NCBI GenBank assembly: GCA_000620545.1
Contig: JIBA01000012.1
Coordinates: 496,001 to 560,000, forward strand
Direction of reading: 5' to 3'
Length of the DNA: 64,000 bases
Source of the DNA: Intrasporangiaceae bacterium URHB0013
GTDB taxonomy: Bacteria; Actinomycetota; Actinomycetes; Actinomycetales; Dermatophilaceae
Below are positions 21,570 through 64,000 of this stretch, piece after piece; the stretch's first letter is position 1; the number at the start of each line of letters is the position of its first letter. Both the position numbers and the translations under genes were made by a program. The notes under the pieces were generated by a model. That model saw only the letters and a program-made list of their open reading frames with translations. It ran no database searches and was not told the DNA's origin.

Positions 21570-24023
21570 GTGAGCCGCCTCCTCGGCCGCACCCGATGGT
21601 CGGTGGCCGCGGCTCTCGCGCTCGTCGGCGTGTTCGTGCTGGGCGCGACCGCCGTGCGCTTCGCTCCTCCCGGATCGAGCGTCGCCGTGTGGTGGCCGGC
21701 CGCCGGCTTGGCGGTGTCCTTCCTGCTCGCGACCGCACCCGGTCCACGCGCCTGGCTGTTCGTCCTCGGTGTCCTCGTCTCGAGTGCGGCCGCCAACGCC
21801 TACGGAGGGCGCCCGCCGCTCGTCGCGTTGTGCCTGGGGGTGGCCAACGCTGCCGAGGCGGCAGTCGTCTTCGGTCTGCTGACCCACGGCGGTCGACGGC
21901 CCACGCTCGCCTCCATGGACGACCTGTGGCGCCTGCTGGCCGCGACACTGGCTGGAGCACTCGTCTTCGCACTGCTCGCCGGCCTCACAGTGAGCATCGG
22001 GCTCGGTGGGCCGTTCCTCGCCACGGCGTCCGCCGTGACCGCCTCGCACGCCGCAGCCGTCCTCGTCTTCGCGCCGCTCGGCATCTCGGCCGGCACACGA
22101 CGCGCGCGGAGCCCCGGTTTCGAGGACCTGGTCCAGTGGGTCGTCACCGTCGGCCTCACCGCCTGGGTCTTCCACACCGGCCAGACGCTCCCGCTGGCCT
22201 TCCTGCCCATCCCGCTCCTCGTCTGGGGCGCCCTGCGCCTCGGGCTGCGCACCGTCGCCCTCCAGCTGCTCGTCGTCGGGGTCCTGGCGGTGACGCTGAC
22301 CAGCTTCGGCGGGGGCCCCTTCGCCGCGGCGGCTCGCGTCGTCGGCATCCTCCCGGAGACGGTCGGTGCGCTCACCCAGGCGTTCCTCGCGACGGCAGCC
22401 GTCACTGCCCTCTCGCTCGCGGTCGCGTCGACGCAGCGTCGCACGGCCCTCGGCGACCTCCGCGGCGAGGTCGAGCTCAGCGGCGTCGTGCTCGACACTG
22501 CGGCCAGTGCCATCATCGTCCTCGACCGGTCCGGGCTCATCGCCCGCCTCAACGCGACCGCAGCGCGCCTGCTCGGTGCGCCCGAGGACGAGCTCGTGGG
22601 TCGCCCGGCCGCGGACGTCTTCCCGGTCAACGACCACGATGAGGTGTCCGACCTGATGTCCGACATCGCCGAGGGCACCGCGGCGCTGCACGAGGAGCAG
22701 GACTGGCGCGTCGAGGGACTCGGCCTGCGCCACATCGTGTGGACCAACGCCTACCTCAGGGATGACGACGGCCACCGCACCCACCTGGTCAAGACCGGCG
22801 TCGACGTCACCGACGAGCGCGCGGCCCGAACCTTCGTCGAGGCCGTCCTCGAGGCCGCCACGGCGACACCCATCATCGGCACCGACCTCGTCGGCGGCAT
22901 CACCCTTTTCAACCGTGGTGCAGAGAACGTGCTCGGCTGGCAGGCGGCAGAGGTCGTCGGCCGACGAGACTGGTCCCTGCTGCACGACCCCGTCCAGATC
23001 GACCGTCGCGCCGACGAGCTCGGCGTCGAGTCCGGCTTCGACGTGCTCGTCCACCGCGTCCGGGAGGGCGCGGCGACCGAGACCCGTGACTGGACGTACG
23101 TCCGCAAGGACGGGATGCGCCGCACGGTGTCCCTGACGATGAGCGGAATCCGCGACGAGGGAGGGCAGCTCACCGGCTACCTCGGCGTCGCGGAGGACGT
23201 GACCCGGCGGCGGCAGGTCGAGGTCACCCTGCAGGTCGCCCTGGACCGGGAGCGTCAGGCGGTCGAGGAGCTCACGCAGCTCGACCGGACCAAGTCCGAC
23301 TTCGTCTCGGCCATCAGCCACGAGCTGCGCACGCCGCTCGCCAGCGTCCTCGGCTACACCGAGATGCTCGAGGACGGGGCCGCCGGTGCGCTCACCGACC
23401 GCCAGCTCGAGCTCGTCGCCCGCGTCGACCGCAACGGCCGTCGACTGCTGTCGCTCATCGAGGACCTGCTGCTCAACTCACGCATCGAGGCCGGTCGCCT
23501 CGAGCTCGACCCGCGCCGCTGCGACCTGTCCGACGTCGTCACGAGCGCGTGGACGTCGGTCGAGTCGGTCACCGCACAGCGCGACCTCGTGCGCGAGCTC
23601 GAGGTGTCGCCGCGGCCGCTGTGGGTCGAGGGTGACCCCGCCGCACTCGAGCTGATGGTCACCAACCTGCTCTCGAACGCCGTGAAGTTCACGCCGGACG
23701 GCGGCCGGGTGGCGCTCGCCGCGCACCACGACGACCGGCGCCCGGACACGGTGCGCCTCGTCGTCTCCGACACGGGAATGGGCATCCCGCCCGCCGACCA
23801 CGAACGCGTCTTCGCGCGCTTCTTCCGCTCGAGCGCGGCCAACGAACGAGCCATCCAGGGCTCCGGCCTCGGGCTGTCGATCGTGCGTGCCATCGCCGAG
23901 GGGCACGGCGGGTCGGTGTCGCTCGACTCGACGCCGGAAGAGGGATCGACCTTCACCGTGTGCCTTCCCGTCTCCACTTCGACGGGCCCTCCGACTCCTC
24001 ATGCATCTCAGGACATATCGTGA
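21570..24023 (+). CDS. Membrane sensor histidine kinase: MASE1-like, two PAS domains
   Basis: 817 residues from a GTG start. Residues 1-290 contain about eight hydrophobic segments in a MASE1-like arrangement. Two PAS domains follow (about 305-420, LDTAASAIIVLDRSG; about 425-545, ATPIIGTDLVGGITLFNRGA, ending GYLGVAEDVTRR). The phosphorylation site is H584 in ISHELRTPLASVLGY. The ATP-binding domain has MVTNLLSNAVKFTPDGG (N box), SDTGMGIPP and SGLGLSIVRAIAEGHGG. Role: membrane sensing with autophosphorylation. No response regulator gene is nearby, so its partner is elsewhere. A second kinase follows after 11 bp. Confidence 0.93.
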   Translation: MSRLLGRTRWSVAAALALVGVFVLGATAVRFAPPGSSVAVWWPAAGLAVSFLLATAPGPRAWLFVLGVLVSSAAANAYGGRPPLVALCLGVANAAEAAVVFGLLTHGGRRPTLASMDDLWRLLAATLAGALVFALLAGLTVSIGLGGPFLATASAVTASHAAAVLVFAPLGISAGTRRARSPGFEDLVQWVVTVGLTAWVFHTGQTLPLAFLPIPLLVWGALRLGLRTVALQLLVVGVLAVTLTSFGGGPFAAAARVVGILPETVGALTQAFLATAAVTALSLAVASTQRRTALGDLRGEVELSGVVLDTAASAIIVLDRSGLIARLNATAARLLGAPEDELVGRPAADVFPVNDHDEVSDLMSDIAEGTAALHEEQDWRVEGLGLRHIVWTNAYLRDDDGHRTHLVKTGVDVTDERAARTFVEAVLEAATATPIIGTDLVGGITLFNRGAENVLGWQAAEVVGRRDWSLLHDPVQIDRRADELGVESGFDVLVHRVREGAATETRDWTYVRKDGMRRTVSLTMSGIRDEGGQLTGYLGVAEDVTRRRQVEVTLQVALDRERQAVEELTQLDRTKSDFVSAISHELRTPLASVLGYTEMLEDGAAGALTDRQLELVARVDRNGRRLLSLIEDLLLNSRIEAGRLELDPRRCDLSDVVTSAWTSVESVTAQRDLVRELEVSPRPLWVEGDPAALELMVTNLLSNAVKFTPDGGRVALAAHHDDRRPDTVRLVVSDTGMGIPPADHERVFARFFRSSAANERAIQGSGLGLSIVRAIAEGHGGSVSLDSTPEEGSTFTVCLPVSTSTGPPTPHASQDIS

Positions 24024-24034
24024 CGATCGGGACG

Positions 24035-25891
24035 ATGGCCGGCGGTCCCGATCCAGGCGTAGGACGGGGACAAGGGGACAGGGTGCGCGACGGCGTGGTG
24101 TGGGAGGTGCTGGCGCTTCGCCGGCTCACGGAGCTGATGAACCGGGTCAGTGCTCAGGACGACCTGTCGAGCCTCTTCGACATGGTCGTCGACGGCGCGG
24201 CCGACGTCGTAGGCTTCAAGGTCGCCGCGATCAGCGTCGTCGTCCCCTCGGGCGACGTCGAGGTCGTGGCCGTCGCCGGGGACGACGACGCGCGCAGCGA
24301 GCTGCTCGGGCGGCGGACCGCCCAGGCGATCCTCGAGGGGGAGTTCGCGGTGGCCGAGCACTGGGGAAGCCTGCGCTTCGTCCCGGCCGGTGGGCTGCCC
24401 GACGAGTCGGCGGAGGGCTGGGTCTCCTCGGACTGGACGGCGCCGACGCCTGCTGGTGACCCCGACGCATGGAACCCCGAGGACACACTCATCGCGCCGT
24501 TCTTCGACGCCGTCGGTGAGCTGCTCGGCTTCCTCTCGGTCGACCTTCCGCTCAGTGGTCGACGTCCCGACGCGACGCAACGGGCCGTGCTCGAGCTCTT
24601 CGCCAACCAGACGGGCATCGCGATCTCGGCCGCCCGACAGCGCCACGCCCTCTCGGAGCGGGTCCGACTCGGCGAGGCCGTGCAGACGGTGGCCCGCATC
24701 GCCCAGGAGGACCTCGACCCGGCCAAGGTGGTCGACGCCGCAGCGGTGCCGATCTCGGCAGGGCTTGCCTCGGCAGGCCTGTGGCTGCGGGCGTTCGCGG
24801 GCGAGGACGACGACGAGCGCGAGAGCGTGTCGGCGCGCAGCGGTGGACCCGTGCGCACCCCGGTGTCCCTGGTGGCCGTCGCACGGCGGGTCGCGGCGCG
24901 CTGCTGGCAGGCCGGCGTCGTCGCGGTCATCGGTCACGACCACGAGGAGCCGGTGCCGCTCTGGGCTGCCGAGGACGTCGCGCAGGTGCGCGCCTTCCTC
25001 GACGACGCCGGTGCGCGATCGATGCTCGTCGCGCCGATGGGCTCGGGGTCGAGCTGCTTCGGCTACATCGCGTGCACCCGCGCGCCCGGCGACCCGGACT
25101 GGACCGACGCCGAGGCGCAGGCGGCGCTCGAGATGGGACGTGACCTCGGCCGGGCCATCCGCAACGCCCGGTTGTATGCCGTCGAGCGGCGTGTCGCAGC
25201 CGAGCTGCGTGAGGCGGATCGGAGCAAGACCCAGCTCTTCTCCACCGTGTCGCACGAGCTGAAGAACCCGCTCGCCTCGATCGTCGGGCACGTGGAGCTG
25301 CTGCGGCAGGAGCCCGACGGCGACCGCGAGTGGTCGCTCGGAGTCATCGAGCGCAACACGGAGCGGCTGCAGAGCCTCGTCGACGACCTGTTGACGCTCT
25401 CGCGGGTCAGTGATCCCGACCGGGCCATGCCCGAGGCCGACGTCGACCTCGGTGAGGTGTCGCGCGAGGTCGTCGACATGTTCCGTCCGCGGGCAGACAC
25501 GCAGCAGGTCAGCCTGACCTTCGACCTGCAGGGGAAGCTGCCGCTCGTCCGGGGCAGCGCCGGTGACCTCGAACGTGTCGTGCAGAACCTCGTGAGCAAC
25601 GCCGTGAAGTTCACCCCCGCCGGCGGCAACGTGGCGGTCTCGGTCGCGAGCCGTCGCGACCGGGTCGTCCTCGAGTGCACCGATGACGGCCTGGGCATCT
25701 CGTCGGAGGACCAGGCAGGTCTCTTCACCGAGTTCTTCCGCGGGACGAACCCGCAGAGCCTCCGGGTGCCGGGCACGGGCCTGGGTCTGAGCATCGCCCA
25801 GCGCGTCGTCAGCCGGCACGGTGGACGGATCGACGTCGACTCCGAGCTGGGTCGGGGGACGAGCGTCAGGCTCCTGCTGCCGGCGCTGTGA
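24035..25891 (+). CDS. Soluble GAF-domain sensor histidine kinase
   Basis: 618 residues from ATG 24035; GTG 24083 (V17), with GGGGACAGG upstream, is an alternative start, and residues before it are poorly structured. Two GAF-like domains (about 20-165 and 190-345), then a HisKA domain with H407 in VSHELKNPLASIVGH and an ATP-binding domain with NLVSNAVKFTPAGG, CTDDGLGISSED and GTGLGLSIAQRVVSRHGG. No membrane segments, so probably cytosolic. It is co-oriented with the membrane kinase 11 bp upstream, and its 3' end overlaps the 3' end of the convergent membrane-protein gene by 26 bp. Confidence 0.9.
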   Translation: MAGGPDPGVGRGQGDRVRDGVVWEVLALRRLTELMNRVSAQDDLSSLFDMVVDGAADVVGFKVAAISVVVPSGDVEVVAVAGDDDARSELLGRRTAQAILEGEFAVAEHWGSLRFVPAGGLPDESAEGWVSSDWTAPTPAGDPDAWNPEDTLIAPFFDAVGELLGFLSVDLPLSGRRPDATQRAVLELFANQTGIAISAARQRHALSERVRLGEAVQTVARIAQEDLDPAKVVDAAAVPISAGLASAGLWLRAFAGEDDDERESVSARSGGPVRTPVSLVAVARRVAARCWQAGVVAVIGHDHEEPVPLWAAEDVAQVRAFLDDAGARSMLVAPMGSGSSCFGYIACTRAPGDPDWTDAEAQAALEMGRDLGRAIRNARLYAVERRVAAELREADRSKTQLFSTVSHELKNPLASIVGHVELLRQEPDGDREWSLGVIERNTERLQSLVDDLLTLSRVSDPDRAMPEADVDLGEVSREVVDMFRPRADTQQVSLTFDLQGKLPLVRGSAGDLERVVQNLVSNAVKFTPAGGNVAVSVASRRDRVVLECTDDGLGISSEDQAGLFTEFFRGTNPQSLRVPGTGLGLSIAQRVVSRHGGRIDVDSELGRGTSVRLLLPAL

Positions 25892-27680: not shown

Positions 27681-29345
27681 TCAGCCGTTCGTGCCGGGGC
27701 CGTAGGCCGTGAGGAACCGGTCGCGGAAGCGGTCCATCGGCCAGACCGGAGCCGTCGGTCCGGGCCGCAGGCCGTCGTGCCAGCCCCAGGCGTTGATGCG
27801 GTCGAGGACCGCCCGGTCGCGCGAGACGACGGTCACGGGCACGTCGTGTCCGGCGTGGTCGCCGGAGACGACACTCACCGGCTGGTGGTCGCCGAGGACG
27901 ACGGCGACGAGGTCGTCGTCGTGGGTCGCCCGCAGGAACGACACGACGGAGTCGATGGAGTACGCGACGGTCTGGCCGTAGGCCGTCCTCACCCGGGCCG
28001 GACTGCTCCACACGACCGCGCGCGGCAGGGCCTTGCCTGCCTGGGCTCCGAAGACGGAGCCGTCGCCGATCGCGGCCCAGTCGACGAGCTCGGGCAGCGG
28101 GGCCCACGGCACGTGGCTCGTGACGAGGTCGATCTCGGCCATGACCGGTGGTCGAGCACGCGTCGGCCGGCGCTCGAGCTCCAGACGGTTGAAGGCGGAC
28201 AGCGTGTACTGGTCCGGCATCGGGGCGTAGCCGAAGCCGGGACCGGCGTAGCCCAGGGTGCGGGCGTCGTAGACCTCGTCGTAGCCGTAGAACGCCTGCC
28301 CCTCGGGCCAGTCGCGGCGGTTGGCCGGGATGACGTCGACGGTGCGCCACCCGGCCCGGGAGAAGGCACCGGCCAGCGTGAGGCGTCGGCTCGCGGACGA
28401 GGCGGTGTCGAGCAGCTGGTCGTAGCGCTGCTCACTGCTCACCCAGAGGCCGGACTGGAGCGTCGAGTGTGCCAGCCAGCTGATCCCGCCAAAGGTCGGG
28501 GACGTGAGCCACGCGCTGCGGGTTGTGAAGCCGGCCGCGCGCAACCCCGTCGTTCCGGTGGCGAGCGACCTTGCGACGTCAGGGCTCTCGTCGACGGCCA
28601 CCCTGCCGTAGCTCTCGACGAAGATGACGACCACGTCCTTGCCGCGCAGCGCGGTCAGCAGGTCGGCCGGGGCGGTGTCGCGGAACGGGTCGACGGCGAT
28701 CTGCCCGGCGAAGACCCCCTGGTCGTGCAGGCCGTCGCGTACGGACGTGGCCTCCCGGGTGGCCAGCGCCAGGGTGCTCGACGAGGCCGTGGGCAGGTCG
28801 ACCGACGCGCCGAGCCCGAGCGAGGCGCAGACCACCCAGACGAGCGTCGCGGCCACGAGGGCGCGCAGCGCACCCGTGCGGTGCCGGTCGACGAGCCGTC
28901 CGACCCGTCGCACGGCCAGCGGGGTGAGGACGAGGAGCCCTGACAGGAGCAGTCCCGCTGCGACGACGGCCAGCACCGCTGTGACCTGACCGACCGAGTC
29001 GCCGAGCAGCCCCGTGGCGGACCCGGCGTAGCGCCAGTCGGTGAGCGGGTTGAACGGTCGGTACAGGGTCGTGAGGAAGGCCGCGTCGAGGATGCGCACG
29101 ACGAGGAGCACCCCCAGCAGCAGACCGAAGAGGATCGCGAACCACCGTGCAGCGGCCCCGCGGAGGAGGAGCAGCCCGGCGACGAGGAGCAGGCCCTCGA
29201 CCGGGAGCCGGAGGAGCGCGACCGCCGTCGGGGACCACCCGAGCAGGGGGCCGGGAGCCACCAGCGCGACCCACACGAGCAGGACGGCGAGCGCCGAGAC
29301 GGCGAGTCCGGAAGCCCGGCGCAGCGAGACGGGACGCCTCCGCAT
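27681..29345 (-). CDS. LtaS/sulfatase-fold membrane phosphotransferase
   Basis: 554 residues from ATG 29345. The first about 190 residues contain five membrane segments; the rest is an extracytoplasmic alkaline-phosphatase-superfamily domain with VVVIFVESYGRVA at its N-terminal edge, FGGISWLAHST and the metal-binding VLGDHQPVS near the end. This layout is that of lipoteichoic acid synthase and phosphoglycerol transferases. Expected action: transfers a phospho-alcohol to, or cleaves one from, a lipid or glycan outside the membrane. It starts 2 bp after the CDP-alcohol transferase gene, so the two are co-translated and probably act in one lipid pathway. Substrate unknown. Confidence 0.85.
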   Translation of the reverse strand: MRRRPVSLRRASGLAVSALAVLLVWVALVAPGPLLGWSPTAVALLRLPVEGLLLVAGLLLLRGAAARWFAILFGLLLGVLLVVRILDAAFLTTLYRPFNPLTDWRYAGSATGLLGDSVGQVTAVLAVVAAGLLLSGLLVLTPLAVRRVGRLVDRHRTGALRALVAATLVWVVCASLGLGASVDLPTASSSTLALATREATSVRDGLHDQGVFAGQIAVDPFRDTAPADLLTALRGKDVVVIFVESYGRVAVDESPDVARSLATGTTGLRAAGFTTRSAWLTSPTFGGISWLAHSTLQSGLWVSSEQRYDQLLDTASSASRRLTLAGAFSRAGWRTVDVIPANRRDWPEGQAFYGYDEVYDARTLGYAGPGFGYAPMPDQYTLSAFNRLELERRPTRARPPVMAEIDLVTSHVPWAPLPELVDWAAIGDGSVFGAQAGKALPRAVVWSSPARVRTAYGQTVAYSIDSVVSFLRATHDDDLVAVVLGDHQPVSVVSGDHAGHDVPVTVVSRDRAVLDRINAWGWHDGLRPGPTAPVWPMDRFRDRFLTAYGPGTNG

Positions 29346-29347
29346 CG

Positions 29348-30136
29348 TCACGGCCGCACGCGCGCGTCGACGGAGCGCGGCTGGACGTCCGACCAGGAGG
29401 AGGGGGGCTCGACGTCCGGAGCCGGCGGCGACAGCCTGCGCAGCGTCGACACCTCCGTGCCGAAGGAGACGACGAGCAGGCCCAGCCCGGTGCCCACGGC
29501 GATGACGGTGACCGGGGTGGGCACGACGCCGGCCACGGCCACCGTGAGCACGATGCCCTGGTATGCCGCGACGACCTTGCGCCACAGCCGGGCCGGGACC
29601 TGTCCGCGCATCCACGGTGCCCACCGCCCCACGAGAGCGACGAGCAGCAGGAGGTAGCGGGCGGCCCCGATGCCGAGAACCCACCACCCGACGTCGCGTG
29701 CGACGAGAACGCTGAGGACGAGAATGAGGAAGGCGTCGGTCTCCATGTCGAAGCGCGCGCCGAGGGGGTGGACGGTCCCGGTGCGGCGCGCGACCCGGCC
29801 GTCGACGGCATCGAGGACGAGAGCGACCGAGGCCAGCGCGACGAGGACGCCGGTGGGCTGGGGGACCCCCGCGCGAGAGGCGAGGGCGTCGGCGACGAGG
29901 GCCGCGACGCCGCAGGCGAGCACCGACCGCATCAGGGTGACGTGGTCGGCCGGCAGGAGGTGACGGCGCGACGAGCGGACGAGCCCGGCGCCGAGCGCCA
30001 CGCACAGCGCCACCCCGCAGACGAGTCCGACGGCCCAGCCGGCCCTGCCCAGTTGGACGCCCTGGTCCAGGGCGGCCAGCAGGGCCAGCACACCGACGAG
30101 CCCGGCACGTGGGCCGGGAGGGATCACCTGACGCAC
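29348..30136 (-). CDS. CDP-alcohol phosphatidyltransferase family membrane enzyme
   Basis: 262 residues from GTG 30136, chosen because AGGTGGAGG lies just upstream; the frame could also begin at TTG 30169. The family motif is complete: D-A-V-D-G-R-V-A-R then G-A-R-F-D-M-E-T-D (Dx2DGx2AR-x8-Gx3Dx3D). About seven membrane segments. It joins a CDP-activated alcohol or lipid to a second alcohol (for example inositol phosphate or glycerol phosphate). Directly followed by the LtaS-like gene, and divergent (84 bp between starts) from the dehydrogenase/PTPS/RibA cluster. Confidence 0.87.
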   Translation of the reverse strand: MRQVIPPGPRAGLVGVLALLAALDQGVQLGRAGWAVGLVCGVALCVALGAGLVRSSRRHLLPADHVTLMRSVLACGVAALVADALASRAGVPQPTGVLVALASVALVLDAVDGRVARRTGTVHPLGARFDMETDAFLILVLSVLVARDVGWWVLGIGAARYLLLLVALVGRWAPWMRGQVPARLWRKVVAAYQGIVLTVAVAGVVPTPVTVIAVGTGLGLLVVSFGTEVSTLRRLSPPAPDVEPPSSWSDVQPRSVDARVRP

Positions 30137-30220
30137 GCGCCTCCACCTCACCGAAAGGGTTCGACCCAAGGACGCCGTCGTTGCCGCCGGAGTTCACGGG
30201 CCCGGCCCTAGTCTGGTCCC

Positions 30221-31213
30221 GTGTCCACCGATGCGCGGGCGTTCTGGGTGGTCGAGCCCGGCAGGGGCGAGATCCGGCCGGTCAGCGTGCCCGACCCCCG
30301 GCCGGGTGAGGTGCTCGTGCGGGCGCTGTACTCGGGCGTGAGCCGCGGCACGGAAACGATCGTCTTCCGCGGGGCCGTCCCCGAGGACCAGCACGCCGTC
30401 ATGCGTGCCCCGCACCAGGAGGGGGACTTCCCCGGTCCGGTCAAGTACGGCTACCTCGGTGTCGGCGTCGTCGAGGAAGGACCGGTGGAGCTCGTCGGAC
30501 GGACGGTCTTCTGCCTGCACCCGCACCAGACGGCATACGTCGTCCCCGTCGAGTCGGTGGTCGTCGTCCCCGACGACGTACCGGCGCGACGGGCGGTGCT
30601 CGCCGGCACGGTCGAGACGGCCGTCAACGCGCTCTGGGACGTCGGCCCCCGGGTCGGTGACCGGGTCGCCGTCGTGGGGGCGGGAATGGTCGGGTGCTGC
30701 GTCGCGCGACTGCTCGCCGGGATCCCCGGCTGCCGGGTCACCCTCGTGGACGTGGACGCAGCCCGGGCGGCAGTGGCCGCCGGGCTCGGCGTCGCCTTCG
30801 CCCGGCCCGACGACCTGTCCCTGGCGCGGGGCGACCACGACCTCGTCGTCCACACGAGCGCGACCGGCGCCGGCCTCCAGCTCTCGCTCGACCTGCTCGC
30901 GCCGGAGGCGACGGTGCTCGACCTCAGCTGGTACGGCGACTCGCGGGTCCAGCTGTCGCTCGGTGGGTCGTTCCACTCCTCGCGTCTGCGCATCCGTGCC
31001 AGTCAGGTGGGTTCGGTTGCTGCAGCGAGGCGCTCGCGGTACACCCACGCCCAGCGGCTCGCCCTCGCGATCGACCTGCTGCGTGACCCGTCCTTCGACG
31101 CCCTGCTCAGCGGCGACTCGTCGTTCGAGGAGCTGCCCGACGTCATGCCGCGGCTCGCGGACGGCTCCCTGCCGGCCATCTGCCACACCATCACCTACCG
31201 ACTGACCGACTGA
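30221..31213 (+). CDS. Zinc-type alcohol dehydrogenase (MDR superfamily)
   Basis: 330 residues from GTG 30221. A TAGTCT -10-like box ends 6 nt upstream, suggesting a leaderless transcript. GroES-like N-terminus (GVSRGTETIVFRG, YGYLGVGVVEEG) and a Rossmann domain with VAVVGAGMVGCCVARLL and an acidic VDVD at the end of beta-2. The classic zinc ligand GHE is missing and structural-zinc cysteines are not seen, so it may be a zinc-free or atypical MDR. First gene of the rightward cluster; the PTPS-like gene starts 12 bp after its stop. Likely oxidises or reduces a sugar or alcohol intermediate. Confidence 0.85.
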   Translation: MSTDARAFWVVEPGRGEIRPVSVPDPRPGEVLVRALYSGVSRGTETIVFRGAVPEDQHAVMRAPHQEGDFPGPVKYGYLGVGVVEEGPVELVGRTVFCLHPHQTAYVVPVESVVVVPDDVPARRAVLAGTVETAVNALWDVGPRVGDRVAVVGAGMVGCCVARLLAGIPGCRVTLVDVDAARAAVAAGLGVAFARPDDLSLARGDHDLVVHTSATGAGLQLSLDLLAPEATVLDLSWYGDSRVQLSLGGSFHSSRLRIRASQVGSVAAARRSRYTHAQRLALAIDLLRDPSFDALLSGDSSFEELPDVMPRLADGSLPAICHTITYRLTD

Positions 31214-31225
31214 AGCGAGGAGCCG

Positions 31226-31624
31226 ATGTTCAGCGTGACCGTCCGGGACCACATGATGGTCGCGCACAGCTTCACCGGGGAGGTCTTCGGGCCGGCCCAG
31301 CGGCTGCACGGAGCGACGTTCGTCGTCGACGTCACCTTCCGCGGGCCGGAGCTCGACGGCGACGACATCCTCGTCGACATCGGACTCGCCACCCGGCACG
31401 TCCACGAGGTCGTCGGCGCCCTCAGCTACCGCAACCTCGACGACGACCCCGCCTTCACCGGGGTCAACACTTCGACCGAGGTGCTGGCTCGCACGGTCGC
31501 GGACCGCATAGCCGACCTCGTCCGCGCGGGCGAGCTCGGGAACGCGATCGACCGCATCACGGCCCTGACCGTGACGCTCCACGAGTCGCACGTCGCCTGG
31601 GCCAGCTACGAGTGCAACGTCTGA
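31226..31624 (+). CDS. 6-pyruvoyl-tetrahydropterin synthase/QueD-like protein with altered active site
   Basis: 132 residues, the usual size of the T-fold PTPS/QueD family, with GAGGAG before ATG 31226. Conserved fold markers: AHSF (H14, zinc), LHGATF (H28, zinc), [22 protein letters not shown] and [11 protein letters not shown] (E120). Key residues are changed: the catalytic Cys of the CxxxHGH motif is A24, the third zinc His is A30, and the catalytic Asp-His pair is S67-Y68. Standard PTPS or QueD chemistry is therefore unlikely; a different pterin-binding or lyase reaction is inferred. It lies between the dehydrogenase and the glycosyltransferase and overlaps the latter. Confidence 0.85.
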
Positions 31625-32670
31625 GCGAGGTCCATGCCGTCGTCCCCGCCGGCATCGACGACCCGTCGCTCCGGAGCGGGGGCAACGCGTATGACCGGCG
31701 GGTCCTCGACGGGTTGCGGGCGGCAGGATGGGAGGTGACCGAGCACGCGGTGGGCGGGTCCTGGCCCCGACCGGACGCAGCGGCACTGGGGCGGCTGGCG
31801 GAGGTGGTCGCCGCGGTGCCCCCCGGTGGACTGCTCCTCGTCGACGGTCTCATCGCCTCCGCTGCCGAGGACGTCCTCGTGCCCGCCGCGGACCGCCTGC
31901 GTCTCGTCGTCCTCGTCCACCTGCCGCTCGGACTGACCGATCCCGTCGCCGCCGTCGCAGAGGGCCGCGTCCTCCGGGCGGCCTCCGCCGTCATCACGAC
32001 GAGCCGGTGGACCCGTGGCGTGCTGCTCGACGCGTACGCCCTCCCGCACGAGGTCATCGGCGTCGCATCCCCTGGCGCCGACCGCGCTGGGCGGTCCGCG
32101 CACACGGCGGACGGGGGTCGGCTGCTGAGCGTGGCGGCGGTGGCCGCCCACAAGGGGCACGGCGACCTCGCCGATGCGCTGGCGCTCGTGTCCGAGCTGG
32201 CGTGGTCGTGCGTCCTGGCCGGATCACTGACCCGTGAGCCAGAGGTCGTGGAGCGGCTGCGCAGGCGGCTCTCGGAGTCGGGGCTCGCCGACCGAGTGCA
32301 GCTGGTCGGCGCCCTCGACGGTGCCGCCCTCGAGCGCGCGTATGCCGCCGACCTTCTCGTGCTGCCCTCGCACGTCGAGACGTACGGGATGGTCGTGACC
32401 GAGGCGCTCGCCCGCGGCATCCCGGTCCTCGCGACGGACGTCGGTGGTGTCGCCGAGGCGCTGGGAGAGACCGACGAGGGCCGTCCCGGCCTGCTCGTGC
32501 CCGCCGGTCGCCCCGACGCGCTGGCAGGCGCCCTCCGATCTTGGCTGACCGACGGTGAGCTGCGCGAGGAGCTGCGTCGGCGTGCGCTGCAGCGGCGGGA
32601 GGCGCTCTCGCCGTGGTCGGTGACCGCCAGCGAGGTCTCGGCCGTGCTCGCCGGGGTGCCGGGTGGCTGA
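31612..32670 (+). CDS. GT4-family glycosyltransferase
   Basis: 352 residues from GTG 31612, overlapping the PTPS-like gene by 13 bp. Two Rossmann halves of the GT-B fold: an N-terminal part with [13 protein letters not shown] (acceptor side) and VHLPLGL, and a C-terminal donor domain with [16 protein letters not shown] and the E-x7-E motif in [19 protein letters not shown]. It retains anomeric configuration and uses a nucleotide sugar. Embedded in the pterin/flavin-type cluster, so it may glycosylate a pterin-derived product or a lipid acceptor. No signal or membrane segment, so cytosolic or membrane-associated. Confidence 0.88.
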
Positions 32671-32730
32671 ACCCGATGGCCGCGTCGGACGTCGTCACCA
32701 TCAGCGGTCCTCGCAGAAAGGGCGGAGGAG

Positions 32731-33708
32731 ATGCACCCCGACAGGTCGTGGCTGCGCCCCCTCGGGGGGCTCGTGATCCTCGGCGTGCTCGTCTGGCGCG
32801 TCGGTGCCGGCGCCTTCGTCGACGCCCTGCGGCACGTCGACGCGCGGTCGGTCGCGATGGCGGCCGCGATCGCCCTGGTGACCACCGTGTGCGGGGCATG
32901 GCGATGGCTGCTCGTGGCCAGGGGCCTCGGCACCGAGCTGTCGCTGCGCTCGGCCGTCGCCGAGTGCTACCGGTCGCAGTTCCTCAACGTGACCCTGCCC
33001 GGCGGGGTGCTCGGTGACGTGCACCGGGGGGTGCGACACGGTCGCGACGGTGGCGACCTCGGGCGCGGCCTGCGGTCCGTCGTCTGGGAGAGGTCGGCGG
33101 GACAGGTCGTGCTGTTCGCCATCACGCTGGGCGCCGTGCTGGTCCTGCCCTCACCGGCGTCGTCGTTGCCGTGGGCCGAGACGGTTCTCCCGGCAGCGCT
33201 CCTCGCCTCGGGGGCCGTTGCGGTGGCAGCCGTTCTCGCCGTGCTGGCGGTGCGCTCGGGCCGGCTGCGGGAGAGCGCCCTGCCCGTGCGTGTCGCACGG
33301 GGCGCGGTGGCCGACGTGCGCGCCGGGCTGCTGGGGCGGCATACGTGGCCGGGGGTCGTCGCGGTCTCCTCGGTCGCCGTCAGCGGGCACGTGGCGACGT
33401 TCGTCCTCGCGGCCAGGAGCGCAGGAGTCACGGCGTCGGTGAGCTCGCTGGTGCCGCTCGCGCTCGTCGTGCTCGTGGCGATGGCCTTGCCGCTCAACAT
33501 CGCCGGATGGGGTCCTCGTGAAGGGGCGGCGGCCTGGGTGTTCGGACTTGCGGGACTCGGTGCCGCCGGGGGAGTCGGTACCGCCGTCGTCTACGGCATC
33601 ATGGCGTTCGTCGCCGCCCTGCCGGGTGCAGCACTGCTCGTCGTGTCGCGGCGCGAGAGGGCGCGGACCCAGCCCGTGCTCGCGACCGAAGGAGCCGCCG
33701 GTGCCTGA
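32731..33708 (+). CDS. YbhN/LPG-synthase-TM-type membrane protein (flippase-like)
   Basis: 325 residues with about eight membrane segments; GGAGGAG directly precedes the ATG. The family pattern is visible: an Arg-rich N-terminus, SQFLNVTLPGGVLGDVHRGV (the conserved polar loop) and LPLNIAGWGPREGAAAWVF near the C-terminus. UPF0104/LPG_synthase_TM proteins without the catalytic domain are thought to flip or carry lipids and often stand beside glycosyltransferases. Here it suggests that the cluster product is a lipid-linked or exported compound. Its last 8 bp overlap the RibD-like gene. Confidence 0.85.
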   Translation: MHPDRSWLRPLGGLVILGVLVWRVGAGAFVDALRHVDARSVAMAAAIALVTTVCGAWRWLLVARGLGTELSLRSAVAECYRSQFLNVTLPGGVLGDVHRGVRHGRDGGDLGRGLRSVVWERSAGQVVLFAITLGAVLVLPSPASSLPWAETVLPAALLASGAVAVAAVLAVLAVRSGRLRESALPVRVARGAVADVRAGLLGRHTWPGVVAVSSVAVSGHVATFVLAARSAGVTASVSSLVPLALVVLVAMALPLNIAGWGPREGAAAWVFGLAGLGAAGGVGTAVVYGIMAFVAALPGAALLVVSRRERARTQPVLATEGAAGA

Positions 33709-34396
33709 CCGCCCCTACACCCTGCTCAGCTGTGGCATGTCGATCGACGGTTACCTCAGTGCCGGCACCTCGACCCGTCTCATGCTGTCCAACGATGCCG
33801 ACTTCGACCGGGTCGATGCCGAGCGGGCTGCGAGCGACGCGATCCTCGTGGGCGCCAGCACGATCCGCCACGACAACCCCCGCCTGCTCGTCCGGTCTCC
33901 CGAGCGCCGCGCGGCCAGGGTGGCTCGCGGGCTCGCCCCGTCGCCGACGAAGGTGACGGTCACGAGGCACGGCGAGCTCGACTCTGCGGCCAGCTTCTTC
34001 GCGGCCGACGGTGCCGACAAGATCGTCTACTGCCCGAGCGACGTCGTGCCCCAGGCGCGGTCTCGTCTCGGTGCGGCTGCCGCCGTGGTGGATGCGGGAC
34101 GTCCGGCGACGATGCGCCGCGTCTGCGAGGACCTCGGCGAACGGGGCATGCAGCGGCTCATGGTCGAGGGGGGTGGCACCGTGCACACGCAGCTGCTCAC
34201 CGCCGACCTCGCCGACGAGCTCCAGCTGGTCGTGGCTCCCTTCTTCGTCGGTGACTCGGGCGCGTGCCGGTTCGTCGGGGACGGGCGGTACCCGTGGAAC
34301 CCCGGCCGCCGCGCGAGGCTCGCCGAGGTGCGGCAGATCGGTGACGTGGTGCTCCTGAGGTATGCGTTGTCGCCACGTTTCCGGGAGAGCGCATGA
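33701..34396 (+). CDS. RibD C-terminal (dihydrofolate-reductase-fold) reductase, stand-alone
   Basis: 231 residues from GTG 33701 (GAAGGAG upstream). It is the reductase half of RibD only: CGMSIDGYLS near the N-terminus, SDAILVGASTIRHDNPRLLVR (NADPH loop) and LMVEGGGTVHTQLL. The zinc deaminase domain is absent and no deaminase is adjacent. In riboflavin synthesis this fold reduces the ribosylamino-pyrimidine; family relatives reduce other pterin- or pyrimidine-like compounds. Immediately followed by a GTP cyclohydrolase II gene (overlap at 34393-34396), so its substrate is probably the GTP ring-opening product or a derivative. Confidence 0.87.
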   Translation: MPDRPYTLLSCGMSIDGYLSAGTSTRLMLSNDADFDRVDAERAASDAILVGASTIRHDNPRLLVRSPERRAARVARGLAPSPTKVTVTRHGELDSAASFFAADGADKIVYCPSDVVPQARSRLGAAAAVVDAGRPATMRRVCEDLGERGMQRLMVEGGGTVHTQLLTADLADELQLVVAPFFVGDSGACRFVGDGRYPWNPGRRARLAEVRQIGDVVLLRYALSPRFRESA

Positions 34397-35088
34397 CGTC
34401 CGCGACGCCGTCGGCACAGGGGGCCGCAGCGCCGGGTCCGGCGCGGATCCGCACGCACGTGCTCGTGCCGATCGCGTTCGCCGACGGTTTCGAGACGACC
34501 GCGCGCATCTTCACCTTCGAGGGCCTGGCCGACGGTCGCGAGCACCTCGCCCTGGGCCTCGGCGACCGAGTCGGTGCGCCTGGGCCAGGGGCCCGCCATC
34601 GGGACCCGACGCCCACCCGGCTGCACAGCGAGTGCCTGACCGGCGACGTGTTCGGCAGCCGGCGCTGTGACTGCGGCGCCCAGCTGCGCGAGTCGGTCGA
34701 GCGTCTCGACGCCTCCGGCGGCTTCCTGCTCTACCTGCGGCAGGAGGGGCGGGGCATCGGGCTCTACCCCAAGCTCGACGCCTACGTGCTCCAGGACGCC
34801 GGGCTCGACACGTACGAGGCGAACGTCGCTCTCGGCTACGGCGAGGACGAGCGCGACTACACCGTCGCGGCCCAGATGCTGGTGGCGCTGGGCATCAGCA
34901 GGGTCGCCCTGCTCAGCAACAACCCCGACAAGGCCCGGCAGCTGCGTGCGCTCGGGGTGACGGTGACCCGTCGCATTCCGACCGGGGTCCACCTGTCCGA
35001 CGCGAACGCCCACTACCTGGCCACGAAGATGGTGCGCGGTGCGCACACCATCGACCTGCCGGTGGAAGGGCGTCGCGGCACTGCGTGA
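34393..35088 (+). CDS. GTP cyclohydrolase II (RibA domain only)
   Basis: 231 residues starting ATG 34393 over the stop of the reductase gene. Zinc ligands C81, C92 and C94 lie in SECLTGDVFGSRRCDCGAQL, and the catalytic/nucleotide segment is LYLRQEGRGIGLYPKL; NNPDKARQLRALGV follows. The reaction opens the imidazole ring of GTP, giving 2,5-diamino-6-ribosylamino-pyrimidinone phosphate. The RibB (DHBP synthase) half is absent and no riboflavin synthase or lumazine synthase gene lies in the window, so this copy may belong to a dedicated pathway with the PTPS-like, RibD-like and GT4 neighbours. Last gene of the rightward cluster. Confidence 0.92.
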   Translation: MTSATPSAQGAAAPGPARIRTHVLVPIAFADGFETTARIFTFEGLADGREHLALGLGDRVGAPGPGARHRDPTPTRLHSECLTGDVFGSRRCDCGAQLRESVERLDASGGFLLYLRQEGRGIGLYPKLDAYVLQDAGLDTYEANVALGYGEDERDYTVAAQMLVALGISRVALLSNNPDKARQLRALGVTVTRRIPTGVHLSDANAHYLATKMVRGAHTIDLPVEGRRGTA

Positions 35089-36601: not shown

Positions 36602-36856
36602 GGCTGGACAGAGCTGGACGGTGGGGTCTCGACGGTGGGGGCCTGGGCGGTAGGTAGCTGACCGCAGGGCACAGCCCATCCCGACCCGCGGGGTGGCGCA
36701 CCTGCGCCATGGCGCATGTCCGCCGCTTTCATGTCCTTCCGGACGAACCGGCCTCTCGGGCACTGTGGCTCGCGACGCCGGAGTCGAACCCGGTGTCTCC
36801 CCCCACGCAGCGTGACCCGAACAGCGGGCTCGCGCGCCACTTTCCGGAGGACCAGC

Positions 36857-39800
36857 ATGCGCCCCATCTGGCGTAACACCCTAGGGGCGGCGACGGTAGC
36901 CATCGTCGCCGCTACCGCGGCCGCCCCGACCTCGGCCTTCGGCCAGGACTCAGGTGCCCCACCGCGGCCCATCGTCGGATCGTCCGCTGCGCAAGCGGCC
37001 AACGGCGCGCCCAAGACGGTCACCCTCATCACGGGCGACAAGGTCCTGGTCACCGGGGCGGGCACGAACTCGCCGATCGCGACCGTGCTGCCGCGCGAGG
37101 ACGGCACCGTGCCGTCCGCCGAGACGCGTCGGGTCGGCAAGGACGTCTACGTCTATCCGGCCGATGCCGCGGACGCCCTGGCTTCGGGCAAGGTGGACGA
37201 GGAGCTCTTCAACGTGACCGGGCTCGTCGCCATGGGCTACGACGACGCGAGCACCGACAGCGTGCCGGTCATCGCCCGCTACTCCTCGGACCTCAGCCGG
37301 GCTCGTTCCGCCCCCGCCACGCCGAAGGGTGCGGCCAAGGGCCAGACCCTGCACTCGATCGACGGCATCGCGCTCAAGGCCGGCAAGGCGCAGGCCGCTG
37401 CGTTCTTCGCCGACGCGACGGACCAGTCCACCGCGGCAGGGGCGAAGATCGAGAAGATCTGGCTCGATGCCAAGGCGTACGCCACCCTCGACCAGTCGAC
37501 GAAACAGGTCAACGCCGACAAGGCCTGGGCCGAGGGCTTCAAGGGTGCCGGCACGAAGGTCGCCGTCCTCGACACCGGCGCCGACGCCGAGCACCCCGAC
37601 CTGCTGGGTCGGATCGCGGCCTCGAAGGACTTCACCGGCTCCGCGGGCGGGGCTCTGAGCGATGTGCACGGCCACGGCACGCACACGGCCTCCACGGTCG
37701 GCGGCTCCGGAGCCGCGAGCGGAGGGGCCAAGAAGGGTGTCGCCCCCGAGACGCAGCTGCTCATCGGCAAGGTGCTCGGTGACAACGGCGGTGGTTCCGA
37801 CTCGATGATCATCGGTGGCATGGAGTGGGCGGTCGCGCAGGGCGCCGACGTCATCTCCATGAGCCTCGGCAGCAACGGGGCGCCTGCCGCCTGCAACGAC
37901 CCCATGTCGTCTGCGGCCCAGGCGCTCGCCACCACGAGCTCCAGCCTCTTCGTCATCGCCGCCGGCAACAGGGGCTCGGCCAACAACACGGTCTCGGCTC
38001 CCGGTTGCGCTCCCGGCGTGCTGACGATCGGCGCCGTGGACCGCCAGGACGTGCCGGCGTGGTTCTCCAGCCGCGGCCCCACCGCGGTCGACCACAACCT
38101 CAAGCCGGAGATGTCCGCACCCGGCGTCGGCATCTCCGCCGCACGCTCGGGCGGGCGCGGCGACGACGCGTACATGGCCATGTCGGGCACCTCCATGGCA
38201 ACGCCACACGTCGCCGGGGCTGCCGCCATCGTCAAGCAGGCGCACCCCACGTGGACCGGGCAACAGCTCAAGGCAGCCCTCGTCTCCTCCGCGAAGTCGG
38301 ACGTGCCCGGTGACGTTCGCGCCCAGGGCGCGGGACGTCTGGACGTGCTGGCTGCGGTCAAGGAGGCAGTGACGACCATGCCCGTGCAGGGCGGCACCTT
38401 CGCCTGGCCGCACACGAGCGAGCAGGTCACGACGGTCGACGTGCCCTACACCAACGTCTCCGACAAGGCGGTGACGCTCCAGCTGTCCATCGCCGGTGTC
38501 ACCGGTGACGACGGCTCTGCCGTCAAGTCGGCGCCGGCGATCCTCGGAGCCTCGGTGGTGACCATCCCCGCGGGTGCCTCCGTCAAGGTGCCCCTGAAGG
38601 TCGACCCCACCGCGAGGCTGGCGGCCGCGCAGTACGGTGACGTCACCGGTCGCATCGTCGCCACCGGCGACGCGAAGGTGTCGACGCCCTTCTCGCTCTA
38701 CGTCAGCCCCGAGACGGTGCAGCTCACGGTCCGGATGAAGGACCGCCTCGGCAACCCGGCCAACCTCGGCTCGAGCGTCGACGTGGTCAACATCGACTCC
38801 ATCAAGGCCGAGCGCGCCTTCAACAACGGCGCCGCGGAGCAGACGTTCCAGGTGCGCCCCGGCACCTACTTCGTGTCGAGCTTCGTCAGGACGCCGGACC
38901 CCGCCTACCTGACGCCGAACACGCAAGGCTCGATCGCCTACTTCGGTCGTCCGGAGCTCAAGGTCACGGGCGACACGACCCTCGACTTCGATGCGACCAA
39001 GGCGCACCTGCTGTCGGTCAAGACCGACCGGCCCAGTGAGGCCAAGGCGTCCGTCCTCTCGTTCGCCCGCACCTGGGACGACACGTGGATCCACTCCGGC
39101 TCGCTCAGTGCGGGTGTGACGACGACCGCCGTGTATGCCGACGTGCAGGGCAACCCGCAGCAGGGCACGTGGGAGTTCGGTGACTGGTCGCGCCGCTACG
39201 CGCCTGCCGTGGAGTCCCTGTCGGTCGTCGGAGGACCGGTGCTGCACCCCATCGCGGCCCCGAACGCGGCGCCCGGTCTCGACGGTGTCGGGACGGCCGG
39301 CCTCGTCGACGGCGGCAACGGCTCGTTCTTCGACCCGGCTCGCGTGGGTGGCAAGGTCGTGCTCGTCAAGGTCAGCCCTGAAGGGATCTCCCCGTCGATG
39401 GTGAACCGGGCTCGCACCGCCGGCGTCAAGACGCTGCTCGCCTACGCTCCGGCGCCCGGCAAGTGGCTGCCCGTGGCCGGCTTCGCACCGCTCGCCGTGG
39501 GCACCTACTCCCTTCCCATGGCCGAGGGCGAGCAGCTCCAGGCGCTCCTTGCTGCCGCCCCTGGCGGTCAGCTGACCCTCTCCTGGACGGCGACGGCAAG
39601 CAGCCCGTACGTCTACAACCTCGGCTTCACCCAGTCGACCCCCCTGACCGACGACAAGACGTTCGTCGTGCAGGACAAGAAGCTCGGGCGCACGGAGGCG
39701 GACTACAAGGGCATGGGCGTCCACACCCCGCTCCTGGACTACGTCTACGCGGGACGGGCTGACGGTCTCGCCTTCGGTGTCTCCGCCTATGAGCCGGTCC

Positions 39801-55989: not shown

Positions 55990-56036
55990 TGGTGGCCAGG
56001 GGCGGGGTCGAACCGCCGACCTTCCGATTTTCAGGG
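55990..56036 (-). pseudogene. 3' half of tRNA-Phe(GAA): attachment site of the integrated element
   Basis: Read on the minus strand: anticodon loop CTGAAAA (56028-56034, GAA = Phe), stem TCGGA, variable loop AGGTC, T arm GGCGG-TTCGACC-CCGCC (56001-56017, fully paired), acceptor 3' strand CCTGGCC, A, CCA (55990-56000). No D arm and no 5' acceptor strand (GGCCAGG) follow at the right distance, so only the 3' half is present. This is the usual duplicated core left when a tyrosine integrase inserts into a tRNA gene; the intact tRNA-Phe should lie at the far end of the element. Confidence 0.8.
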
Positions 56037-56103
56037 AGACGCATTCGTGCAGGTCAGGCCCTGTCTCTGGCCGGCTGTGCGATCTGGCGTGCGATCGATG
56101 GAG

Positions 56104-57216: not shown

Positions 57217-57416
57217 CAGCCCGAACCGGCCGGATAGAGGCGCAGCCGCTCGACCGTGCCCTCGTTGATGAACTCCTGGAGCTCGGTCTCGGGGATCCGG
57301 ACGTGCCTTCCGACACGAACAAACCGAATTCGTCTCTCAGCGATGAGGCGTCGCGGAAACCTCGCGGTGGTTCCGAGAACCCTGGCAGCGTCCTCGACGG
57401 TCAGCAGTCGCTCCAT
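57216..57416 (-). CDS. Excisionase-like helix-turn-helix protein
   Basis: 66 residues, a MerR/excisionase-type winged helix: LLTVEDAARVLGTTARFPRR, then RRIRFVRVGRHVRIPETEL and a short tail. Such proteins next to an integrase bend the attachment DNA and favour excision. Overlaps the integrase start by one base. Divergent from lsr2 with 252 bp between. Confidence 0.85.
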   Translation of the reverse strand: MERLLTVEDAARVLGTTARFPRRLIAERRIRFVRVGRHVRIPETELQEFINEGTVERLRLYPAGSG

Positions 57417-57668
57417 TTTGCGCGCTCCTTGTGCGGTCTGAGCGCGAACCGCGGACGGGGGTCACCATCAGTTGCAGGCTGCGCCCCGCTGAGGGTCACG
57501 GTCGGCCAGCAGGGTGCATGCTGGCTCACCCGCGGCCAGCGGCAGGGGTGTGGAAAGCGTCATCGGGACCATTCCTCGCCTCCCTCTCACGCTGAGGTGG
57601 CGAACCGCGCATTGCTTGTGATTCGATGCTGCCGCAGGGATTCATCAAACAGTTGGAGAACCCACGGC

Positions 57669-57998: not shown

Positions 57999-58006
57999 GG
58001 CCAGCA

Positions 58007-58046
58007 ACGCAGGTCGCCCGCCCCGGCGAGGGCGGGCGCCCTGCGT
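58007..58046 (+). terminator. Hairpin terminator after lsr2
   Basis: ACGCAGG-T-CGCCCGCCC pairs with GGGCGGGCG-C-CCTGCGT (9 bp, one mismatch, 7 bp) over a 6-nt loop; it begins 9 bp after the lsr2 stop codon. Confidence 0.8.
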
Positions 58047-63997: not shown

Positions 63998-64000
63998 ACG

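What the first reader, a model, noticed from the sequence alone, without database searches (positions are those of the whole stretch)
27681..35088. Candidate undescribed pathway: pterin/flavin-type enzymes with glycosyl- and lipid-transfer enzymes
Eight genes in two divergent units: CDP-alcohol transferase, LtaS-like enzyme / MDR dehydrogenase, PTPS-like protein, GT4, YbhN-type flippase-like protein, stand-alone RibD reductase, stand-alone GTP cyclohydrolase II. Riboflavin synthase, lumazine synthase, RibB and RibD deaminase are absent, so this is not a riboflavin operon. Overlapping starts argue for one product: perhaps a GTP-derived, glycosylated, lipid-linked or exported compound. This grouping is an inference from gene order.
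Basis: partly seen in the sequence, partly recalled or inferred. Interest (0 to 1): 0.8.

Follow-up and report, generated by a model that had tools for sequence, protein, structure and literature searches.

The report
Conserved unexplained pterin-type lipid/glycan pathway
This eight-gene cluster, kept together in many actinobacteria and in part in rhizobia and salt-loving archaea, appears to turn GTP into an unidentified, probably pterin-like, sugar- and lipid-linked compound.

Summary
In detail: eight genes at 27681-35088 in two divergent units. The genome also has a complete RibD-RibE-RibBA-RibH operon, so this is not the riboflavin source.

The set is a real unit. In the 80 named relatives examined (of at least 583), MDR lies near the PTPS gene in 79, GT4 78, YbhN 74, CDP-alcohol transferase 73, GTP cyclohydrolase II 64; two flanking window genes used as controls in 3 and 2.

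The PTPS is subfamily PTPS-IV (FGPAQ), whose RibA/RibD_C neighbourhood was noted in 2017 (PMC5445326) without a function.

New support for a GTP-derived pyrimidine: where the cyclohydrolase lacks the catalytic-position tyrosine, a creatininase-type gene is nearby (43 of 43); where it is kept, none was found (49 of 49). This rests on only 2-3 evolutionary events. Haloarcula has GTP cyclohydrolase III instead.

Best reading: GTP to diaminopyrimidine to pterin-like ring, then glycosylated, joined to phospholipid and flipped. The product is unproven. Against: the reductase is missing from 28 of 43 tyrosine-less loci.

The parts
27681..29351 (-). LtaS-like membrane enzyme, probably of the sulfatase / alkaline-phosphatase superfamily (ATG at 29345, GTG at 29351); optional member of the set
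   Evidence: 9 of 12 rows of an alignment of homologues hit PF00884, the window protein does not; conserved E246-S-Y, S284-P-T, S412-H, G487-D-H; found in 24 of 80 named loci
29348..30151 (-). CDP-alcohol phosphatidyltransferase, GTG start, 267 aa, complete D-x2-D-G-x2-A-R...G-x3-D-x3-D motif
   Evidence: PF01066; motif invariant in 11 of 11 aligned rows incl. haloarchaea; nearest solved kin, weakly (37 bits or less), CDP-DAG serine transferases, then cholinephosphotransferases
30152..30220 (.). 69-base divergent intergenic region, presumed to hold both promoters
   Evidence: coordinates only; promoters not tested
30221..31213 (+). MDR-family dehydrogenase, BchC-like, classical zinc ligands apparently missing
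   Evidence: within 300 b upstream of PTPS-IV on the same strand in 51 of 53 full-flank loci that have both
31226..31624 (+). PTPS-IV subfamily tunnelling-fold protein (FGPAQ), 132 aa; close to solved SCO6650 (3d7j)
31612..32670 (+). GT4 glycosyltransferase
   Evidence: PF00534/PF13692; 78 of 80 named loci
32731..33708 (+). YbhN / MprF-type lipid flippase-like membrane protein
   Evidence: PF03706; 74 of 80 named loci
33701..34396 (+). stand-alone RibD_C reductase, nearest to archaeal-type diaminopyrimidine reductase
   Evidence: PF01872; TIGR01508 best of NCBIfam though under its cut-off; PDB 5xv5 and 6p8c
34393..35088 (+). stand-alone GTP cyclohydrolase II with catalytic-position tyrosine Y131 kept
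   Evidence: PF00925, NF001591 over cut-off, residue by alignment

Best explanation
The cluster is one conserved biosynthetic unit of two parts. Supply part: GTP cyclohydrolase II opens GTP to 2,5-diamino-6-ribosylamino-4(3H)-pyrimidinone 5'-phosphate, and the RibD_C reductase reduces the ribose to ribityl while the 2-amino group stays (no deaminase). Core part: the MDR dehydrogenase and PTPS-IV act together on this pyrimidine. I propose that MDR oxidises C2' of the ribityl chain; the 5-amino group then condenses with that ketone, which gives a 7,8-dihydropterin ring (dihydroneopterin phosphate type) without GTP cyclohydrolase I, held by PTPS-IV through its conserved glutamate E120. GT4 adds a sugar, the CDP-alcohol transferase joins the product to a phospholipid, YbhN flips it outwards, and, where present, the LtaS-like enzyme modifies it outside. 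Supported here by sequence: the unit, its families, entry by a GTP-derived formyl/diaminopyrimidine. Inferred: every step after the reductase, and the lipid-linked product. My split confidences: one functional unit 0.95; GTP-to-diaminopyrimidine entry 0.85; pterin-type ring 0.5; lipid-linked 0.45; exact C2' oxidation chemistry 0.2.
For: Conservation: 80 named loci, counts PTPS 80, MDR 79, GT4 78, YbhN 74, CDP-OH 73, MTase 67, GCH II 64, RibD_C 55, creatininase 30, LtaS-like 24, against 3 and 2 for two flanking window genes used as controls (tblastn E <= 1e-4 within up to 10 kb, so orthology of the common families is not proven); 42 of 54 full-flank loci hold all six core genes. Haloarchaea keep MDR-PTPS, with GT4 and MTase in L039, L173 and L174. 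Entry: the residue at window Y131 is Tyr in 49 of 49 loci where no creatininase was found and Met 35/His 7/Leu 1 in 43 of 43 with it; creatininase-family BrbF deformylates the formylated intermediate (PMC9478397, abstract and passages); Haloarcula loci L038 and L175 have GTP cyclohydrolase III beside MDR, which makes that intermediate (PMC7288161, passage). Two coupled parts: distance correlation GCH II-RibD_C 0.95; within the core 0.71-0.92 (PTPS-MDR 0.92, GT4-CDP-OH 0.90); between parts 0.47-0.72 (no species-tree control). Amino group kept: the reductase matches archaeal-type reductases best and no deaminase is in the cluster. PTPS-IV keeps Glu (E120) but has HGA for HGH and LSY for LDH against 2dj6 (alignment weak, E 0.16), so a different chemistry is expected. 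Lipid: the two best solved kin of the CDP-OH enzyme are CDP-DAG serine transferases; YbhN has the MprF-type membrane domain.
Against: The reductase was not found in 28 of 43 tyrosine-less loci, and 8 of 8 such genomes tested, with a Streptomyces-type reductase as query, have no close copy elsewhere (best 37-52 bits, against 394-424 in the 2 that have it), so reduction is not obligatory everywhere and the reduce-then-oxidise scheme cannot be general. The tyrosine/creatininase match rests on only 3 changes on the tree, with 2 independent pairs on supported branches. One or more of the six core genes is missing from 12 of 54 full-flank loci; L045, L046 and L156 have PTPS-IV without the others. 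The window lacks the methyltransferase found in 67 of 80, so products may differ between lineages. The donor of the CDP-OH enzyme is open: kin are weak (37 bits or less) and include cholinephosphotransferases, which use a CDP-alcohol instead. No metabolite, assay or mutant is known to me. The LtaS structure job did not finish.
Confidence: 0.45

Rival explanations
1. The unit makes a soluble, exported pterin or azapteridine (like toxoflavin or pterin glycosides); GT4 makes a soluble glycoside and the CDP-alcohol enzyme forms a phosphodiester with another alcohol; YbhN serves export.
For: Same entry to the pathway. GT4 and CDP-OH substrates cannot be told from sequence; some solved kin of the CDP-OH enzyme use CDP-choline. 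LtaS-like gene found in only 24 of 80 loci.
Against: CDP-OH enzyme and MprF-type membrane protein in 73 and 74 of 80 loci fit a lipid better.
Confidence: 0.25
2. A second source of riboflavin precursors: extra RibA and reductase feed or regulate flavin synthesis, other genes are passengers.
For: GCH II and RibD_C are riboflavin-type enzymes, tightly coupled to each other (r 0.95).
Against: Full riboflavin operon elsewhere; no RibB, RibH, RibE or deaminase here; MDR and PTPS-IV are more constant than GCH II or RibD_C.
Confidence: 0.08
3. Two neighbouring systems: a teichoic-acid-like glycolipid locus (LtaS-like, CDP-OH, GT4, YbhN) and a pterin locus, held together by co-regulation only.
For: LtaS and CDP-OH are on the other strand; GCH II and RibD_C have a different history from the rest.
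Against: GT4 overlaps the PTPS gene in the window and co-varies with CDP-OH (r 0.90), YbhN (0.87) and MDR (0.87); CDP-OH also stands by MDR/PTPS in haloarchaea L038, L039 and L175.
Confidence: 0.1
4. A step of F420 or deazaflavin synthesis, as stated for PTPS-IV from unpublished work in PMC5041015.
For: Statement in that paper (passages). F420 shares the ribitylaminopyrimidine precursor (general knowledge). An F420-dependent oxidoreductase is annotated near the set in Streptomyces fungicidicus.
Against: No F420 biosynthesis gene is named in the annotated neighbourhoods that I read; F420 families were not searched. The set is found in rhizobia and Thiodictyon, where F420 is not usual (recalled).
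Confidence: 0.05

Closest known systems
PTPS-IV neighbourhood of COG0720 (PMC5445326, AGeNNT 2017; passages read)
   Same: FGPAQ signature; PF00925 and PF01872 in the neighbourhood (561 sequences there)
   Different: In the passages I saw, that paper names only those two neighbours, labels PF00925 as GTP cyclohydrolase I/FolE2, and gives no product; its supplement was not seen. The MDR, GT4, YbhN, CDP-OH, LtaS-like and creatininase links were found here
Streptomyces coelicolor SCO6650-SCO6655
   Same: SCO6650 (PDB 3d7j) is the close PTPS-IV homologue (E 1.1e-55); six genes in order PTPS, GT4, MTase, YbhN, creatininase, GCH II in many Streptomyces loci fit tags 6650-6655 (inference from numbering; that locus was not fetched)
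   Different: The Streptomyces loci with GCH II that I read have Met at the tyrosine position plus creatininase; the window has Tyr and none. That SCO6655 makes the formylated product through Met120 is recalled from Spoonamore 2006; only the reference was seen
Archaeal riboflavin entry (ArfA/GCH III, ArfB, reductase before deamination)
   Same: Same intermediates; archaeal-type reductase; GCH III itself in Haloarcula loci
   Different: No lumazine/riboflavin steps here; MDR, PTPS-IV, GT4 and CDP-OH instead
BrbF creatininase-type formamidase (PMC9478397; abstract and passages read)
   Same: Creatininase-family enzyme on the formylated intermediate, as proposed for Streptomyces-type loci
   Different: Serves riboflavin in rhizobia; no creatininase gene in the window set
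Toxoflavin-type (GCH II + RibD-like) natural product clusters (recalled)
   Same: Re-use of riboflavin enzymes for another product
   Different: No PTPS-IV, MDR, CDP-OH or YbhN (recalled)

Membership tests
PTPS-IV (COG0720 subfamily) | FGPAQ signature | tested here: met
   window residues 21-25; of the 43 rows only L046 (FGSAQ) and haloarchaeal L038 and L039 differ
PTPS-IV (COG0720 subfamily) | neighbourhood with PF00925 and PF01872 | tested here: met
   64 and 55 of 80 named loci by tblastn
QueD / PTPS-I | CxxxHGH motif and queuosine neighbours | tested here: not met
   HGA, Ala at the Cys place; QueD model 38.5 of 89.25 bits; no Que gene among the ten proteins scanned
PTPS-II (biopterin) | CxxxxxHGH motif | tested here: not met
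   motif from PMC5041015
PTPS-III (folate) | ExxHGH motif | tested here: not met
   motif from PMC5041015
Riboflavin operon | RibB, RibE, RibH and RibD deaminase present | tested here: not met
   they are elsewhere
GTP cyclohydrolase II | family score, three Cys zinc motif, catalytic-position Tyr | tested here: met
   244.2 bits against cut-off 148, NF001591; ECLTGD...RCDC and Y131
GTP cyclohydrolase II | forms the diaminopyrimidine from GTP | not testable with these tools
   needs an assay
Diaminopyrimidine reductase (archaeal type) | TIGR01508 over its cut-off | tested here: inconclusive
   best model but 114.9 of 186.45 bits
LtaS (lipoteichoic acid synthase) | sulfatase-type domain | tested here: inconclusive
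   no Pfam hit for the window protein; 9 of 12 rows of an alignment of homologues PF00884; no PDB kin by profile; one row of that alignment (L091) was in a wrong frame
LtaS (lipoteichoic acid synthase) | phosphoglycerol transfer from phosphatidylglycerol | not testable with these tools
   needs an assay; structure job unfinished
CDP-alcohol phosphatidyltransferase | complete CDP-OH motif | tested here: met
   invariant D114, D117, G118, A121, R122, G131, D135, D139 in 11 of 11 rows
Zinc MDR alcohol dehydrogenase | catalytic zinc ligands | tested here: inconclusive
   by inspection Ser stands where Cys is usual and no GHE motif is seen (motifs recalled; the N-terminal alignments are weak)

The most novel reading that the evidence does not exclude
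The cluster makes a new class of membrane lipid: a glycosylated pterin built from the GTP cyclohydrolase II product without GTP cyclohydrolase I, anchored to phospholipid and flipped to the outer leaflet, where it works as a lipid redox carrier. Cytochrome b561 genes beside the set in 6 Rhizobiaceae plasmid loci and in Thiodictyon (family checked for L035 only) would be its electron partner there; none was found in the window set or in the 80 named actinobacterial loci.
Probability: 0.12. Interest if true: 0.92.

Novelty: new variant of a known kind. Interest (0 to 1): 0.62.

Why it matters
The set gives PTPS-IV, a family with a solved but unexplained member, a concrete biochemical setting, offers a reason why some GTP cyclohydrolase II paralogues have lost the catalytic-position tyrosine (a creatininase-type formamidase candidate stands near them), and points to an untested route from GTP to a pterin-like lipid.

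Tried and rejected
Chance grouping of neighbours: rejected by counts and by two flanking-gene controls. Riboflavin operon or sole ribA: rejected. QueD/biopterin/folate PTPS: motifs not met. Viral cargo: no relative in viral contigs (single protein query, close relatives only); in PHROGs a general alcohol-dehydrogenase hit for MDR (6.3e-17), a weak QueD-like hit for PTPS (2.1e-4), none for the other two scanned. On plasmids the set does occur. Missing methyltransferase elsewhere in the genome: none found with one query (an empty answer is weak). Reductase supplied from elsewhere in tyrosine-less Streptomyces: not found in 8 of 8, which weakens my chemistry. A gene beyond the known set: rough neighbour clustering gave no unlabelled family of its own in more than 16 of 118 loci (its largest components merged several families, so members could hide there). 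Literature: ten searches in CC-licensed PMC papers listed no paper that, by title, abstract start or the passages I read, gives the product; most listed papers were not opened, and the two most relevant (Phillips 2012, Spoonamore 2006) are not held. Loci were not dereplicated against each other. From the 92 cyclohydrolase loci, two were dropped before the tree (L163 without a motif match, printed there; L056, in which one search shows no MDR), leaving 90; L163 was counted as Tyr by alignment. The 32 of 124 loci without a cyclohydrolase in the stretch say nothing on the tyrosine test; among them L141 has a creatininase. Error of mine: row L091 of alignment A3 (25% identity) was cut in a wrong frame; A3 was used, not for the folding job (A5).
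Full report
What is there. On the minus strand lie an LtaS-like membrane enzyme (27681-29345 or 29351) and a CDP-alcohol phosphatidyltransferase (29348-30151). On the plus strand lie an MDR dehydrogenase (30221-31213), a PTPS-family protein (31226-31624), a GT4 glycosyltransferase (31612-32670), a YbhN-type membrane protein (32731-33708), a RibD_C reductase (33701-34396) and a GTP cyclohydrolase II (34393-35088). Three plus-strand junctions overlap by 13, 8 and 4 bases, and the minus-strand pair by 4 if the GTG start of the LtaS-like gene is used. The two units are divergent with 69 bases between them.

Not a riboflavin operon. The genome has a second GTP cyclohydrolase II, lumazine synthase and RibD, and the stretch around them holds, by Pfam, RibD with its deaminase, riboflavin synthase, RibBA and RibH in a row. 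It also has two GTP cyclohydrolase I genes.

Is the grouping real? PTPS relatives were found in 32 of 197 genomes of the class (three of these are marginal, E about 2e-4), and in 9 of 9 genomes of the own genus (the own one counted), 21 of 58 relatives in all. In these 80, tblastn at E <= 1e-4 found MDR in 79, GT4 in 78, YbhN in 74, CDP-OH in 73, a methyltransferase in 67, GCH II in 64, RibD_C in 55, a creatininase in 30 and the LtaS-like gene in 24; two window genes that flank the set, used as controls, in 3 and 2. Such hits do not prove orthology for common families, and 26 of the 80 stretches are cut short. Of 54 loci with full flanks, 42 hold all six of MDR, PTPS, GT4, YbhN, CDP-OH and GCH II, and MDR lies within 300 bases upstream of the PTPS gene on the same strand in 51 of 53 that have both. 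Nearest named kin are Terrabacter and Terracoccus (MDR 89% identity to L087). On plasmids, rhizobia, Methylosinus, Thiodictyon, roseobacters and a Microbacterium carry versions of it, and haloarchaea carry MDR-PTPS with a methyltransferase and, in some, GT4 or CDP-OH. L045, L046 and L156 hold a PTPS-IV gene without the others.

Which PTPS. The protein carries the FGPAQ signature of COG0720 subfamily PTPS-IV. PMC5445326 (passages) reports a PTPS-IV cluster of 561 sequences with PF00925 and PF01872 as neighbours, and, in what I read, no product. PMC5041015 (passages) says that PTPS-IV takes part in F420 synthesis, citing unpublished work. The closest solved structure is SCO6650 of Streptomyces coelicolor, named uncharacterised (3d7j). 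Against the related chain 2dj6, a weak alignment (E 0.16) has HGA for HGH and LSY for LDH, so one zinc ligand and the Asp-His pair of ordinary PTPS enzymes would be replaced (roles of these residues recalled), while the C-terminal glutamate that anchors the pterin ring (recalled) is invariant (E120). Haloarchaeal copies have a His in place of that Ala. So the pocket looks kept and the chemistry changed.

Entry from GTP. In the GCH II alignment the window has Tyr131, the place of the catalytic Tyr105 of E. coli (numbering recalled). Across 92 loci with GCH II, 49 have Tyr and in none of these was a creatininase gene found in the stretch; 43 have Met (35), His (7) or Leu (1), and all 43 have a creatininase. 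Four more rhizobial loci read later are Tyr, with no creatininase hit. Creatininase-family BrbF removes formate from the formylated pyrimidine intermediate (PMC9478397, abstract and passages). I recall that SCO6655, with Met in that place, stops at this intermediate (Spoonamore 2006; only the reference was seen). The two traits therefore fit one need: the pathway requires the deformylated diaminopyrimidine. The statistics are weaker than the counts: on an MDR tree of 90 loci each trait changes 3 times, and only 2 independent pairs lie on supported branches, both concordant. Third solution: Haloarcula loci L038 and L175 have GTP cyclohydrolase III (PF05165 for L038; annotation and 84% identity for L175) between CDP-OH and MDR, an unrelated enzyme that makes the formylated intermediate (PMC7288161, passage); L047 has it beside MDR.

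After the entry. All 49 Tyr loci also have the RibD_C reductase; only 15 of 43 tyrosine-less loci do, and 8 of 8 such genomes tested have no close copy elsewhere. The reductase is nearest to archaeal-type enzymes that reduce before deamination (5xv5 is named only 'Conserved protein', its nature recalled), so the 2-amino group of the pyrimidine is expected to stay, as in pterins. Distance correlations split the set: GCH II with RibD_C 0.95; within the rest 0.71-0.92 (PTPS with MDR 0.92, GT4 with CDP-OH 0.90); between the parts 0.47-0.72 (relatedness of species not controlled). I read this as an exchangeable supply part and a constant core.

Mechanism. The core starts with MDR and PTPS-IV. MDR resembles BchC weakly (39.9 of 291 bits) and, in its C-terminal part, polyol and other dehydrogenases, and appears to lack the usual zinc ligands. 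If it oxidises C2' of the ribityl chain, the neighbouring 5-amino group would close a dihydropterin ring. This is inference, and the lineages without reductase would need an Amadori-type step instead. GT4, a CDP-OH enzyme with intact motif whose two best solved kin use CDP-DAG, though others use CDP-choline and all are weak, and an MprF-type membrane domain then suggest a glycosylated phospholipid that is flipped. The LtaS-like enzyme would act outside; it is optional, has no Pfam hit in the window, and its structure job did not finish. Six Rhizobiaceae loci and Thiodictyon add cytochrome b561 (Pfam for L035), which hints at a redox role there; four other alphaproteobacterial loci (L037, L041, L043, L044) and the 80 named loci show none.

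Verdict. Its entry chemistry is well supported, its product is not known. The novelty lies in the extended set and in the tyrosine/creatininase/GCH III pattern; the PTPS-IV, RibA and RibD_C association itself was in print. No paper found in ten searches names the product, but most subscription papers, among them the two most relevant, were not held.

Noticed in passing
L045, L046 (Streptomyces linear plasmids), L156: A PTPS-IV gene without MDR, GT4 or GCH II nearby; in L045 and L046 it stands near cupin, MEKHLA and MBL-fold genes, a possible second use of the family.
   Followed up: no
own genome C17:177593-178123 and C15:153435-153944: Two GTP cyclohydrolase I genes; the second may belong to another pathway.
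   Followed up: no
own genome, 10 places: Ten RibD_C-type matches, many more than riboflavin needs.
   Followed up: no
L035, L040, L169-L172, L034: Cytochrome b561 beside the set in six Rhizobiaceae plasmids and Thiodictyon; FkbM methyltransferase in some.
   Followed up: partly
L037, L044: MdoH-type glucan glucosyltransferase directly beside MDR-PTPS-GT4 in Methylosinus and Neorhizobium.
   Followed up: no
window 56001-64000: Lower GC (0.635-0.647 against about 0.71 in the first 40 kb) and a protein with Schlafen AlbA_2 and HATPase_c_4 domains at 58543-60132: could be a later insertion.
   Followed up: no
window 21570-25891: A histidine kinase with MASE1 and PAS domains, followed by what looks by its translation like a second kinase.
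   Followed up: no
PMC9478397: That paper still lacks the enzyme that makes the formylated intermediate in rhizobia; GCH II variants without the catalytic-position tyrosine, as seen here near creatininases, would be candidates to look for.
   Followed up: no
window 36716-40633: Large subtilase-family protease, 1305 aa.
   Followed up: no
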